Positions 10,601-19,500 of a DNA stretch of 64,000 nt are shown in pieces. Source of the DNA: Mansonella perstans (taxonomy: Eukaryota > Nematoda > Chromadorea > Rhabditida > Onchocercidae); the NCBI GenBank assembly GCA_037074765.1, contig JBAMDO010000083.1, positions 1 to 64,000 of the forward strand. Direction: 5' to 3'. The notes under the pieces were generated by a model. It was given only the letters and a program-made list of their open reading frames with translations, did not search any database and was not told the DNA's origin. The position numbers and the translations under genes are program-made. Position 1 is the stretch's first letter. The number at the start of each line of letters is the position of its first letter.

Positions 10601-11275
10601 CATCATCTTATACATATGCGTCATCTACATGAATGTAGTGTGCACAGTTGGATTTGACTAAGTGGAATGTATAACAATGAAGGAAAAAGTAGCACAGTTT
10701 AAAACGTTTATGAATAAATAAATAAATGAATAATCCCTTCAAACATTTAACGAAATCTAACTGAAAATAATTTAAACCCCCGGGAGTAATTTAAAACCAT
10801 CAATTTAAACTAATGCGATTTAAGCAGAAGTTTTTGTTGAAAATAAAAAAAATTACCACTGGAGTCATCAATCAAGTCTGAATCATCATTACTAAGGCGT
10901 CTACTTGACTGATCATAATTCGATTGTAGCATCTGTAAAATGAATCTGTTATTTTGAAATTATATTCCAATCAGATTAATAAATTCAGTTAATTTCTTTT
11001 CCTTCGTCTTTTACTAATAGGTTATTAATTAATTTCAGAAAATGATTTTTATGAAATTTTAAATACGAAAACAATAAGCTAACCGGCGAGGTTCGACTTA
11101 GAGACTGATTAGAATCATTTGATGATTTATCTTCCAAACGTTCGTCTAAATGAGTATGGGACAGTTTTACTGATTTGACAAATGATCTGTCCCCAACAGT
11201 ATTACCATATGGTACCGAAAAGGTCAATCGCTCATTAGTTCGTCTCTTATCATCGTGATTTTCTTGATTATACAT
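7640..11275 (-). CDS. coiled-coil protein of unknown function
   Basis: Nine minus-strand exons assemble in phase: 11275-11084, 10932-10857, 10394-10292, 10133-10067, 9835-9651, 9091-9001, 8695-8564, 8331-8126 and 7775-7640, giving 395 residues. The first ~165 residues are polar, Ser/Asp-rich and probably disordered. From the exon at 9835 onward the protein is a charged heptad-like coiled coil (for example KSQLNELCRLIEKKDKQLR and FEKREWSIERERL). The last exon has an acidic repeat-like pair, SDEERMQLLRNLSDTLHLSDEE. The start ATG lies 19 bases after a TTTGCAG acceptor at about 11295, a likely trans-splice site. The last exon is supported by phase: the donor at 8125 ends AG and the acceptor at 7776 supplies T. 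It resembles centrosomal, Golgi or cytoskeletal coiled-coil proteins only in general character, and I do not recognise the family. Confidence 0.72.
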
Positions 11276-11472
11276 TATTTTAAATTTATAATCACTGCAA
11301 ATGGATTATCTTAAAATTATTCGTATTATTTTACGAGCATATTTATCGTAAAAATTATTTTGAAAGCATATTTATCGTAAAAAAAAAAAGTTGTTTTTAC
11401 ATTATTTTGAATTTATAATCACTAATATTGTAATGTACATATTACTAAAAAATGTTTTTCTACTTTTTTGAA

Positions 11473-11815
11473 ATAAACAGCCTTTTTCTGTTTATGTAAC
11501 TATTTATCTGGAGTAAATATTTCCATTTACTGCTTGCGATTTACCCGAGTAAATATGAGGGAAAACATAAGGTCTACTCTTATTTAATCTTGTTCCTAGT
11601 GTTGGTTACTGGACTACCAATGTTGTCATTGTTATGTGGACTCTTACCGCACCTTTTCACCGCTTACCTAGAATACTTTAGGCGGTAACTTTCTGTAGCC
11701 CTATAACTAGAGTTACGCCGGCGGGCGTTACTATTCTTCCTTGGAGTTCGGATTATTCTCTGTTGTGCTTATCACACATAGTACCAGACAACGGACCTAT
11801 AGCAAAGTAATCGTT
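11473..11815 (-). pseudogene. bacterial-type RNase P RNA (rnpB)-like relic, probable Wolbachia-derived nuclear insertion
   Basis: Read on the minus strand, this GC-richer island carries the conserved blocks of bacterial type A RNase P RNA in the right order. They are TCCGAACTCCA (for GUCCGGGCUCC), GTAACGCCCGCCGG, CTACAGAAAGTTACCGCC (for CACAGAAA..ACCGCC), GGTAAGCGGTGAAAAGG, GGTGCGGTAAGAG, GGAACAAGATTAAATAAG (for GGAGCAAGRCCAAAUAGG), CTCGGGTAAATCGC, CCAGATAAAT, and a 3' end like ACAGAA..GGCTTAT. Near-complete length (~340 bases) suggests one insertion of the whole gene. Several universally conserved bases differ: GAGGAAAGUCC reads GAGAATAATCC, and AAAUAGG reads AAATAAG. It therefore looks decayed rather than functional. 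Nematode nuclear RNase P RNA lacks these bacterial-specific loops. Origin from a Rickettsiales endosymbiont is inference from the host type; the 5' end is approximate. Confidence 0.75.
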
Positions 11816-11949
11816 GCTATAAAAAGGAAAGTTAGGCTAATAAATTTGATATGGAAGAAGTCATATTAAATCAAAAAAATTAGTGAATGAAGTTAGAAAA
11901 TGAAGTGGCAAAATGAAAGAAATAACTTAAATTAGAAATTGCAAAATTT

Positions 11950-12125
11950 TTAATAATCATGGACGATAAAATGTCACATATCCTTGAGTTTCATATTGTT
12001 GTCAAAATATGTCGTACGGGTTGTTGTGACATTAAAACAGTAGATATTCAAGAAACGCCGGCTGGAATTTAGTAAATATTCCTCGTCAACATGCGCTACA
12101 GTGTTTTGAAGTGCTTTAAATTAGT
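11950..12125. other. coding-like stretch of ambiguous strand next to the rnpB relic
   Basis: On the plus strand an ATG frame from about 11959 encodes 38 residues ending QETPAGI then stops. On the minus strand an overlapping frame of about 48 codons (including VDEEYLLNSSRRF) is open to a TGA. Codon composition is less AT-biased than the surroundings. It could be more inserted bacterial DNA or a gene relic. Not recognised. Confidence 0.2.
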
Positions 12126-12681
12126 TTTACACTAATGTAACATAATAGGACTTTCCTTTTCCTTCAGAAATAATTTTATGAAGCACTTTGCAATTTTCGT
12201 TTTAAATAAGGTAAATGAAATTGCTTGTTTTCAGAATTCTATCCCTTTCAACTTATTTCAAATCTTTGTTTAAAGTCATTGACTGCTTTACCAGTTATAA
12301 AAATTATTTTAATTTCTCAGAGAGAATAAAAGCACAGGGAAAATTGCAGGTCAAATTTGCATAAAACTAATACTATTTCTAATTCGAATTACTTCCATGA
12401 TAGGTATAAATTTTCAAATTCTTCACATGTTGTTAATTTTGCACCTTTTAATCGCTAAGCTAAATTTTAGCAGAAACCACATGTACATATATGTCAAATA
12501 AAATAATTTGAGCACAGGTAATGAAAGAAATGATGAATGTCATGTCTTATCAAAACATTAAATGAAAAGATGTGATAAGTTAAAATAAAACTAAATAAAA
12601 TGAAACAAGTTCATGAGTGAAAAACATGCAATAATAGATTCAAATGTTTGGCGTTATCAATATCATTGTTTAAAGAATTAA

Positions 12682-12894
12682 TTGATGGGACCTTTAACAG
12701 AAGAGTTGGAAATGTCTATTGCGCCATATTGTGAATCAGTGTTTAAGGATGTTACTTTTCCACAGTTTGGAAAAGAAAACTTGTTGACGTTATTGCAAAC
12801 AAGTTTTATTGTAATAACAGCAATTTGTCGTGAAGTTGTCGAGAAAATCAAACTTTCGTTCTCACATTACTCATATTATCCAGAACAAAATTAA
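12682..12894 (+). CDS. small ORF, hypothetical or gene relic
   Basis: An open frame from about 12682 to TAA at 12892-12894 (70 residues) has mixed, protein-like composition with two Cys and a hydrophobic centre (LLTLLQTSFIVITAI). Just upstream, in another frame, an ATG at 12614 opens a short reading (MSEKHAIIDSNVWRYQYHCL). Together they could be a frame-broken older gene. No splice partners are evident and the family is not recognised. Confidence 0.25.
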   Translation: MMGPLTEELEMSIAPYCESVFKDVTFPQFGKENLLTLLQTSFIVITAICREVVEKIKLSFSHYSYYPEQN

Positions 12895-13283
12895 ATTATT
12901 CATTGACAATAAAACAAATCCTAATAGGTTGAAAATAAAATTATATGAGTTAAAGTAATTTGAAAATGAACTTGAGTTACGGAAAAATTGATTTATTTTC
13001 GAAAAAAAATTTAAAAGAATAAATGAGGTGAAGAAAATTAATGAACTAAGCAAAGTTTAAGTATTTTTGCTGATAATTATAAATAAAATGCTTTTGAATT
13101 ATAATTGAAAGCTACTTTACATATATATTCTTGAAAATTTTTCAGTGACAATATTTGTTGTAGTTATTCTGCAATCAAAGTTTGCTTCATTTTCTTTTTT
13201 TTTATTTCAAAATTTCTTCTGAAGAATGAGAAAAGGAAATGTCACCTTAACTTTAAATTTGAGTTTTAATTAAATACAATTAT

Positions 13284-16454: not shown

Positions 16455-16557
16455 TTTGGCGCAGCTGTTTTATTCAGTTTTTGGAAAACTTCAGCTTAAT
16501 ATCTTTCGCATTATTCCAACCGGTGGTGCGCTTCCGGTACGGTCGGGTGCACGCAAT

Positions 16558-19500
16558 ATGGGTTTGAGTCCGGAATTGTTCCAGTTGCCGGATCGTTCGT
16601 CAGGGCAGCATAATATGACAATACGAGAACTTTGTGACAATGATGATATGGCAACCAGCGTTATTGTAGATCCAGTTCTCGGATTTCGCACTCATAAAAT
16701 GAATCTCCAGTAAGTATAACAGTCGGTTCGATCTTATCAGCAGGATAGCCTGATCGTTACTGAAATACTATATTAAATTACAAAGTGTTGGTCAATGTTA
16801 AATTGTCATTACTAATTGAAATACGAGATTCTCTGCTATTTGATCAAGAATAAAACTAGCAAAAGAAAATACGCACTAAACACTCTCTCCAGATTCACTA
16901 ATTTTATCAGTTGGCTAGTTGGAATGTATTAATAATTATCCACAACCTAATTGTCAGATCGTCATATTACTGACAGTGCTTATAGTTATCGTCCGCCATC
17001 ACACGAAGAACAAACTAAACTGAAGAGCATACTGAGGAAATATAAGGAAGATCAGGATATGTGTGCAGCAGTGCGGGACATTTTCCATGTGAGCGCAGTA
17101 ACGAGATTCCTGAAACGTCGAACGCTTAAACAGCAGCTTGCATTCCGAGATCATGTATATTTGACATTTTAATTGCTGCATTTCATCTACCATTACATGA
17201 GAGCAGTATCGCCAATTCTATTCCATTTTAGCTTTTGCGGTTTATGCGGATGTTTTCTTACGATTCTGGCTTTACAGTGCAAGCTTGTCATCGTTATAAA
17301 ACTGAAAATCGCCTTGGTGGAATGCTAGTTGCTACAAAGTCGTGGTACTTTAACTTTTTTCTCGAAATTTTTTCAGTTCCTTCAAAATTTCATTATAGAA
17401 TCATCGTAATGATTTTCGGTATTTATTTTGACAATTGTTTGATGATTGAAGGCGTTTCAGAGATGTTACCGACATCCTTTATTAATTCTTGTTGTACTAA
17501 ATAGTCTACTGTTTTTTTTTTTTTTTTTTTTTGTATGCATAGGTTTTTATGATCATAATAATACTTTAATAAGTTACATTTATTTTAATCATTCCAGGCA
17601 AAAAGGTGATGTAATTGGCAGTTTAGTAGGTGTTATTGGTGATCTCAGTCACGAAGAAGAATCGCAATTGCTGCGAAAAGACGTCAATGACTTCTCTGTC
17701 ATGTATAGTACAAGGTATGCAATATATCTCATTACGAGGTATGCAGTATTTCTTATCGGTCACCGTAACTTCACTGCGTATAATAATTTTAGGAAACAGC
17801 GAGCTCAGTTGTGGCTTGGTCCTGCTGCTTATATTAATCACGACTGTTATCCAAATTGTAAATTTGTTCCCAATAGTTATGCCGCTGTTGTTCAGGTATC
17901 ATTCAGTTATTCAGCCGATAGATTATGTAAGGAGTAGTGTTTTTCAACTACCAGGTTATAAAGAACAATATATTATGGGTTCGTTTAATTCCAGGTACTA
18001 CGTGACATTGCTGTAGGAGAAGAAATTACAGCTTATTATGGCGAGAACTTTTTTGGCGATAATAATAGTCGCTGTGAATGTTTGACTTGTGAAAGGTATG
18101 TTTACCGTTTTTCCACGATTTGCGCTTTGCGCCTAAGCACCGTTGGTTTTTTTTCTCTTACCATTTTAAGGGACTTGGAAATAATAAGACTCATAAATAA
18201 TATATATCCTCGATACACGGTGGCTTATGAGTGTTTGTATAACAATCATGATACGATTTTTGACATTTGCGTTTTTTATCGTAAACTTGTATTTATGTTG
18301 CGAGAAAAGTCGCTTATCCAAAGTTTGTGATTTTTCCAGGAAATTTTAATTTTGTGGGTAATAAACTTTATTTGCAGAGCTTGCAGAGGTTTTTTCACAA
18401 GTTTGGTAGTAGCAGCTGTTGCTCCGTCGGAAAAAAATAATGAATCGAAAAAGTCTGGTAGTAGTTATACATTTCGTGTAACCGATTCGAGGCTTTGTCG
18501 TTATATGCCACAGTCAAATCAGCTGAACACGATGATGACGCTTCGCCGACATACTGCTGCTGCTGCTTTACGGCACGTACCTCATCGTTTCTCAGCTGAA
18601 AGTATGTGATTCTTTAACTTAGATTTAGTGCTAATATCAGAAGTAAATTCCCCTATGAAGTTTTGAGTGCAAATGATTTACACATTTGTTTGGGGAAAAT
18701 GTCAAGATTTCTTTTAGAACTACCAGCGAAAAATGCTATGAATCATTCGAAAAAAAGGACCAGAAAAATGAATAGTAGCCGCTGTGTTATTAGAAATCAG
18801 CAGAGACTTAGCCGTACCATAAGAACATCGTCTGCATCTTCATCTTCATCGTCGTACTCGACTGTGTCTAATTTGCAGTCTTGGATGAACACTACACCGT
18901 ACATGATTGTGAGTAGTACGAAAGCAGAGAGTTCTAAGGGTAGGAAGCATTCGCAGGAAAGCGATTTGAATACCTCAATTAATTTGGTCCCGGCTGGGGA
19001 ATCTCGCATATGCCAAGCTTTGAAGCGAAGAAAATCAGCAAAAAATAATAGGTCCACACTGGTTAATCGTCCTAGCAGAACAAATAGCCAGCTGAACTGT
19101 GAAAAACCGCGTACATCGCAGAACGGTTTACAAATTCTTGCTGCAGTTGCAACCACTATGAGCTTTATTGATGGATCTCATTTATTGTCTTTATCAAAAA
19201 AGTCCTTTAATGGTATTGGTGATATCGACGATGATGTCAAAAATGAGCATTATTCTGATATGGAAATTCAATCAGCTTCTAATTACTACAACGACTACAA
19301 TTTTTCTTTAAATCGCAGTGCTGCAGAAGTTACCGAGAGTCGCTCGTCTTCTGGATCCGATGATTTGGAAGACATGAACTGTTCCAAATCATCTCTTTCG
19401 GAAAGCGATGATGTGCTTTCAAATGTTTTTGATGGAAATGAGTGCTATAATGATGATGGTGATGGTTATGATGGGGTTTCTGAGACCGATTCCGATAATG

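What the first reader, a model, noticed from the sequence alone, without database searches (positions are those of the whole stretch)
11473..11815. Near-full-length bacterial RNase P RNA relic in a nematode nuclear region
The minus strand shows at least eight conserved blocks of bacterial type A RNase P RNA in order, including GGTGCGGTAAGAG and the 3' ACAGAA..GGCT end, in a locally GC-richer island with eukaryotic multi-exon genes on both sides. Substitutions in invariant positions indicate decay. This is best read as a horizontal transfer from a Wolbachia-like endosymbiont, and it is a structural RNA gene that a protein-based search for transfers would miss.
Basis: partly seen in the sequence, partly recalled or inferred. 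Interest (0 to 1): 0.75.

Follow-up and report, generated by a model that had tools for sequence, protein, structure and literature searches.

The report
Decayed Wolbachia RNase P RNA fragment
A broken copy of a bacterial RNA gene, left in a nematode chromosome by a past Wolbachia symbiont, is an ordinary genomic fossil, although its kind (an RNA gene) is one that protein-based surveys miss.

Summary
The minus strand matches Rfam RF00010 (bacterial RNase P RNA class A) at 128.4 bits, E about 5e-39, the only such match reported in the 75.7 Mb assembly. The DNA shared with Wolbachia is 11469-11778, 310 nt of an RNA of about 350 nt. It is 79-89% identical to rnpB of 40 Wolbachia and 64-66% to 2 Holospora. 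Likelihood favours a supergroup F-type source; supergroup C and the remaining strains are rejected weakly (AU p 0.039), wCfeJ is not. It is dead: 24 nt at the 5' end and 9 nt at the 3' end of the model match are missing, 14 of 184 positions invariant in live copies are changed, and changes ignore conservation. The assembly holds other short Wolbachia-like pieces, including 16S and CtrA-like fragments. So this is a NUWT (nuclear Wolbachia transfer), a well-described class, here from a structural RNA gene. I looked for signs of RNA-mediated insertion: the match stops close to the RNA's 3' end, but there is no target-site duplication. Ordinary DNA insertion is much more likely.

The parts
11469..11778 (-). 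Wolbachia-derived rnpB pseudogene core (310 nt): from inside helix P3 to 5 nt before the end of P1's 3' strand (9 nt before the end of the model match in the four closest live copies)
   Evidence: blastn match in 40 of 41 Wolbachia genomes; nhmmer profile with flanks; cmscan RF00010; missing ends counted; helix names recalled, positions from the structure line
11779..11804 (-). Stretch that the covariance model aligns to the RNA 5' end but without significant similarity to live rnpB; most likely host DNA or scrambled
   Evidence: envelope to 11798; anchored score 0 for 4 of 4 reference strains
11450..11468 (-). A-rich stretch where Wolbachia has the last P1 nucleotides and its 3' flank; no significant similarity to either
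   Evidence: anchored p 0.34 to 1.0 for 4 reference strains

Best explanation
A fragment of the genome of a supergroup F-like Wolbachia, carrying most of rnpB, was inserted into a nematode chromosome and has since decayed without selection. Shown: homology to Wolbachia rnpB, single copy, flanks unrelated to Wolbachia, loss of invariant positions and pairs. Inferred: germline insertion of a short DNA fragment by end joining, as for the other Wolbachia pieces in this genome; no function in the host.
For: RF00010 match of 128.4 bits against 256.1-296.6 bits for live rnpB in 40 of 41 Wolbachia-genus genomes. Identity (gaps left out) 79.2-89.4% to the 40 Wolbachia sequences against 64.2-65.7% to 2 Holospora. 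Placement with wOc, G026 and G030 as likely as the best tree; AU test rejects placement with supergroup C (p 0.039) and with the remaining strains (p 0.039), not with wCfeJ (p 0.113). Decay: 14 of 184 live-invariant columns changed, against 0 in 26 of 40 live strains and at most 10 in the others; 24 changes private to the relic, 11 of them G>A or C>T; 14 of 24 at invariant columns, as expected if blind to constraint (204 of 338 columns, p 0.84). 36 marks of non-standard pairing against 8 and 10 in two live copies, counted by eye; some of the 36 come from the missing 5' end. Flanks single copy. Other Wolbachia-like fragments: C65 84.8% over 375 columns inside a CtrA-like gene, a 16S piece in C52 at 93% over 614 columns that includes 167 bp upstream of the Wolbachia 16S gene, and 37 matches at 25 places, the relic included, to one 20-kb Wolbachia stretch.
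Against: No reads were available to span the junctions. The supergroup placement is weak (ultrafast bootstrap 50-63 for the nodes around it). The match ends close to the RNA's 3' end, which a random DNA break does not predict. Two short matches (32 and 46 nt, E 4.6e-5 and 1.1e-4, one genome each) lie about 1.9 kb away on either side in the 4.3-kb stretch tested; they do not adjoin the relic. No non-Wolbachia DNA was run against the assembly as a negative control.
Confidence: 0.93

Rival explanations
1. RNA-mediated insertion: the RNase P RNA of the symbiont was reverse-transcribed by a host retroelement and inserted, as a processed pseudogene of a bacterial RNA.
For: Wolbachia flanks on both sides are recognisably conserved between most strains aligned, yet the relic matches the RNA alone and stops 5 nt before the end of P1's 3' strand, followed by an A-rich stretch; the 5' end is truncated. 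In two arthropod strains the class of three non-coding RNAs that includes rnpB draws a relatively high share of reads (passage of PMC12558409).
Against: No target-site duplication (longest exact shared word 6 nt). The A run is 6 nt in a 30% GC region. The 5' boundary lies 24 nt inside the RNA. A 16S fragment in the same genome includes 167 bp upstream of the gene, and another fragment is from coding DNA.
Confidence: 0.05
2. Assembly artefact: a piece of live symbiont DNA misjoined into the host contig.
For: Reads were not inspected; 16 of 22 filarial species surveyed carry live Wolbachia (abstract of PMC12693587).
Against: The copy is too decayed for a live gene: the 5' end is lost, 14 of 184 invariant columns are changed, 128 against 256-297 bits. 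No other rnpB was reported in the assembly. A 310-nt misjoin inside a 229,887-bp contig is unlikely.
Confidence: 0.01
3. A functional host RNA derived from bacterial RNase P RNA.
For: Most of the fold can still be aligned by the covariance model.
Against: Changes ignore conservation (14 of 24 at invariant columns); the 5' strands of P1 and P2 are lost; many pairs broken; the DNA upstream of the Wolbachia gene is absent.
Confidence: 0.01

Closest known systems
NUWTs (nuclear Wolbachia transfers) of filarial nematodes, PMC12693587
   Same: Short decayed Wolbachia fragment in a nematode nuclear genome, supergroup F-like source, among other such fragments; NUWTs of supergroup C origin in Onchocerca average 434 bp in that paper
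   Different: Source is a structural RNA gene; that survey used protein orthogroup models and says it cannot see sequences outside protein-coding genes
5S rRNA nuwt of Brugia malayi, PMC3849323
   Same: A Wolbachia structural RNA gene inside a nuclear insertion (passage)
   Different: That insertion also holds a protein gene and is transcribed in L3 larvae; here the fragment holds rnpB alone and expression is unknown
Wolbachia rnpB (RF00010, RNase P RNA class A)
   Same: 79-89% identical, aligned to the whole model
   Different: Relic lacks 24 nt at the 5' end and 9 nt at the 3' end of the live model match, has a 7-nt deletion and lost pairs

Membership tests
NUWT | Sequence nests with Wolbachia rather than with other bacteria | tested here: met
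   79.2-89.4% to 40 Wolbachia, 64.2-65.7% to 2 Holospora; trees. Anaplasma, Ehrlichia and Rickettsia were not sampled; Mesenet gave no rnpB match
NUWT | Flanked by host DNA | tested here: met
   No adjoining match of the flanks in 41 Wolbachia genomes; eukaryotic domains in the same window
NUWT | Evolves without constraint | tested here: met
   14 of 24 private changes at live-invariant columns, expectation 60%, p 0.84
NUWT | Reads span both junctions | not testable with these tools
   no reads held
Functional RNase P RNA, class A | Covariance-model score above gathering | tested here: met
   128.4 against 100 bits
Functional RNase P RNA, class A | Intact outer helices and invariant core | tested here: not met
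   5' strands of P1 and P2 without similarity; GAGGAAAGTCC of 40 of 40 live copies reads GAGAATAATCC; 14 of 184 invariant columns changed
Functional RNase P RNA, class A | Catalysis or expression | not testable with these tools
   no transcripts held
Retroposed (processed) RNA pseudogene | Target-site duplication | tested here: not met
   longest exact shared word 6 nt between 90-nt flanks; an old duplication may have decayed
Retroposed (processed) RNA pseudogene | Ends at the transcript 3' end with an A tail | tested here: inconclusive
   stops 5 nt before the end of P1's 3' strand, then 6 A and A-rich DNA in an AT-rich genome; the mature 3' end of the Wolbachia RNA was not measured

The most novel reading that the evidence does not exclude
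The insertion went through RNA: an abundant symbiont RNA was copied into the nematode chromosome by a host retroelement, which would be a second route for symbiont-to-host transfer beside DNA fragments.
Probability: 0.05. Interest if true: 0.55.

Novelty: new member of a known kind. Interest (0 to 1): 0.2.

Why it matters
As a single locus it adds little: Wolbachia fragments are common in filarial nuclear genomes. It does show that structural RNA genes (here rnpB, and 16S pieces in the same assembly) can serve as markers of past infections that the published protein-orthogroup survey says it cannot see, and that covariance models still find them when diverged.

Tried and rejected
RNA-mediated insertion was considered because the match stops near the RNA's 3' end while Wolbachia flanks are conserved; no target-site duplication, a truncated 5' end and DNA-type neighbours (a 16S fragment with 167 bp of upstream DNA) argue against it. 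A larger insert with decayed flanks: not supported, since flanks gave no adjoining match to 41 Wolbachia genomes while the core matched 40. An empty or repeated site elsewhere in the assembly: none found, 10700-12700 is single copy. Similar DNA in plasmid and phage records: short or weak matches only, the best 23% of the query at 75% identity in a Legionella plasmid record. Host species: not identified; the assembly size (75,729,464 bases, 539 contigs) is near that of Mansonella ozzardi (76,054,666) and Cruorifilaria tuberocauda (75,516,636) in the table of PMC12693587 but equals neither. Planned searches of the assembly for 23S, alpha tmRNA and spliced-leader RNA did not complete.

Full report
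What is there. The minus strand of 11465-11804 matches the Rfam model of bacterial RNase P RNA class A from end to end (128.4 bits, gathering 100). In the whole assembly, 75,729,464 bases in 539 contigs, this is the only match reported for that family; the tool scored 15 of 387 first-look candidates, so weaker copies could be missed. ARAGORN finds no tRNA in the window. The window is the first 64,000 bases of a 229,887-base contig.

Whose RNA it is. Live rnpB was found in 40 of 41 Wolbachia-genus genomes at 256.1-296.6 bits. The relic is 79.2-89.4% identical, gaps left out, to the 40 Wolbachia sequences and 64.2-65.7% to two Holospora. The best are the unnamed G026 (89.4%) and G030 (88.5%), then G018 (88.2%) and wOc (87.9%). 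G018 has the size of wCfeJ (1,201,647) in the table of PMC7750005 (passage). I take wOc, whose record title mentions wOsmia, to be the supergroup F strain wOcae of PMC10195089 (passages); that G026 and G030 are F-type is inferred from their rnpB alone. A maximum-likelihood tree puts the relic among G026, G030 and wOc, together with the long-branched G028, with low support (50-63).

Where it starts and stops. Against 41 Wolbachia genomes a 4.3-kb stretch around the relic matches at 11469-11778, or part of it, in 40 genomes, plus two isolated short matches of 32 and 46 nt about 1.9 kb away; seven candidates per genome were scored. A profile built from nine Wolbachia loci with 250-nt flanks aligns the same 310 nt (envelope 11450-11798). 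The region upstream of the Wolbachia RNA and the DNA downstream are recognisably conserved, by eye, among most of the 14 Wolbachia strains aligned, but absent here. Anchored alignment finds no significant similarity beyond either end. In the four closest live copies 24 nt at the 5' end and 9 nt at the 3' end of the model match lie outside the relic; 5 of those 9 belong to P1 (structure line).

It is dead. Of 184 columns invariant in the 40 live sequences 14 are changed in the relic; when each live strain is treated the same way 26 of 40 have none and the most is 10, in a long-branched one. Of 24 changes private to the relic against its four closest kin, 14 fall on invariant columns, the share expected by chance (204 of 338, p 0.84); 11 of 24 are G>A or C>T. 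There are nine deleted and two inserted columns in the core. The block GAGGAAAGTCC, the same in 40 of 40 live copies, reads GAGAATAATCC. The model marks 36 non-standard pair positions in the relic, some of them from the missing 5' end, against 8 and 10 in two live copies, counted by eye.

Its company. In Wolbachia G026 the gene just downstream of rnpB encodes a response regulator whose best NCBIfam match is CtrA, below that model's cut-off. A fragment of it lies on another contig of this assembly (C65, 84.8% to wOc), with a smaller overlapping piece on C21. 16S-like matches lie on C52, C270 and C371. The C52 piece is 93% identical to wOc and includes 167 bp upstream of the Wolbachia 16S gene; C270 is 83% identical; C371 was not compared with Wolbachia. 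One 20-kb stretch of G026 gives 37 matches at 25 places, the relic included, 46-370 bp long. Of these, 24 matches at 14 places fall on a roughly 480-bp repeat of the Wolbachia genome, so the count is not one of independent insertions. Eight places (C65, C83, C537, C61, C59, C26, C89, C21) are matches of 71 bp or more at 83% or better outside that repeat. No non-Wolbachia control was run. The relic is therefore one of a number of short Wolbachia-like fragments, of different divergence.

Host. An ORF in the window matches the Srx chemoreceptor family above Pfam's cut-off, a nematode family by established knowledge. Filarial origin is inferred from assembly size, GC and the Wolbachia fragments; the species is not identified.

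Literature. PMC12693587 (abstract, methods, results and the first part of the discussion read) screened 22 filarial genomes with models of 2,647 protein orthogroups and states that sequences outside protein-coding genes are not detected. PMC3849323 (one passage) describes a 5S rRNA nuwt transcribed in Brugia malayi larvae, so RNA-gene insertions as such are not new. Searches for rnpB or RNase P RNA together with Wolbachia or endosymbiont transfer listed no paper that I recognised as reporting an rnpB insertion; I saw listings only (20 of 38, 0, 8 of 8 and 10 of 80 papers), apart from what is named here and passages of PMC12558409. Most subscription journals are not held.

Verdict. The locus is an ordinary NUWT that happens to come from a structural RNA gene; the RNA-mediated route remains a low-probability alternative.

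Noticed in passing
G000:C52:220299-220802 (L093), C270:29763-30056 (L094), C371:1292-1571 (L095): 16S rRNA-like fragments in the same assembly; C52 93% and C270 83% identical to Wolbachia wOc, of different divergence; C371 only just reaches the model cut-off (50.2 bits) and was not compared.
   Followed up: partly
G000:C65:31703-32072 (L090) and C21:224387-224457 (L091): Two separate fragments of the CtrA-like response-regulator gene that neighbours rnpB in Wolbachia, on contigs other than the relic's.
   Followed up: partly
L096:1582-2056, 12639-13098, 16471-16935: A roughly 480-bp repeat of the Wolbachia genome G026, with no frame over 96 residues and no unusual folding at the copy examined, accounts for 24 of the 37 host-genome matches; why it is so common among them is not explained.
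   Followed up: partly
G032 and G004: No RF00010 match in one of 41 Wolbachia-genus genomes and in Candidatus Mesenet longicola; perhaps incomplete assemblies.
   Followed up: no
L096:13129-15309 (-): A 726-residue open frame (stop to stop) with a long threonine/serine-rich part and a hydrophobic stretch near its C-terminal end, in Wolbachia genome G026, about 700 bp from its rnpB.
   Followed up: no
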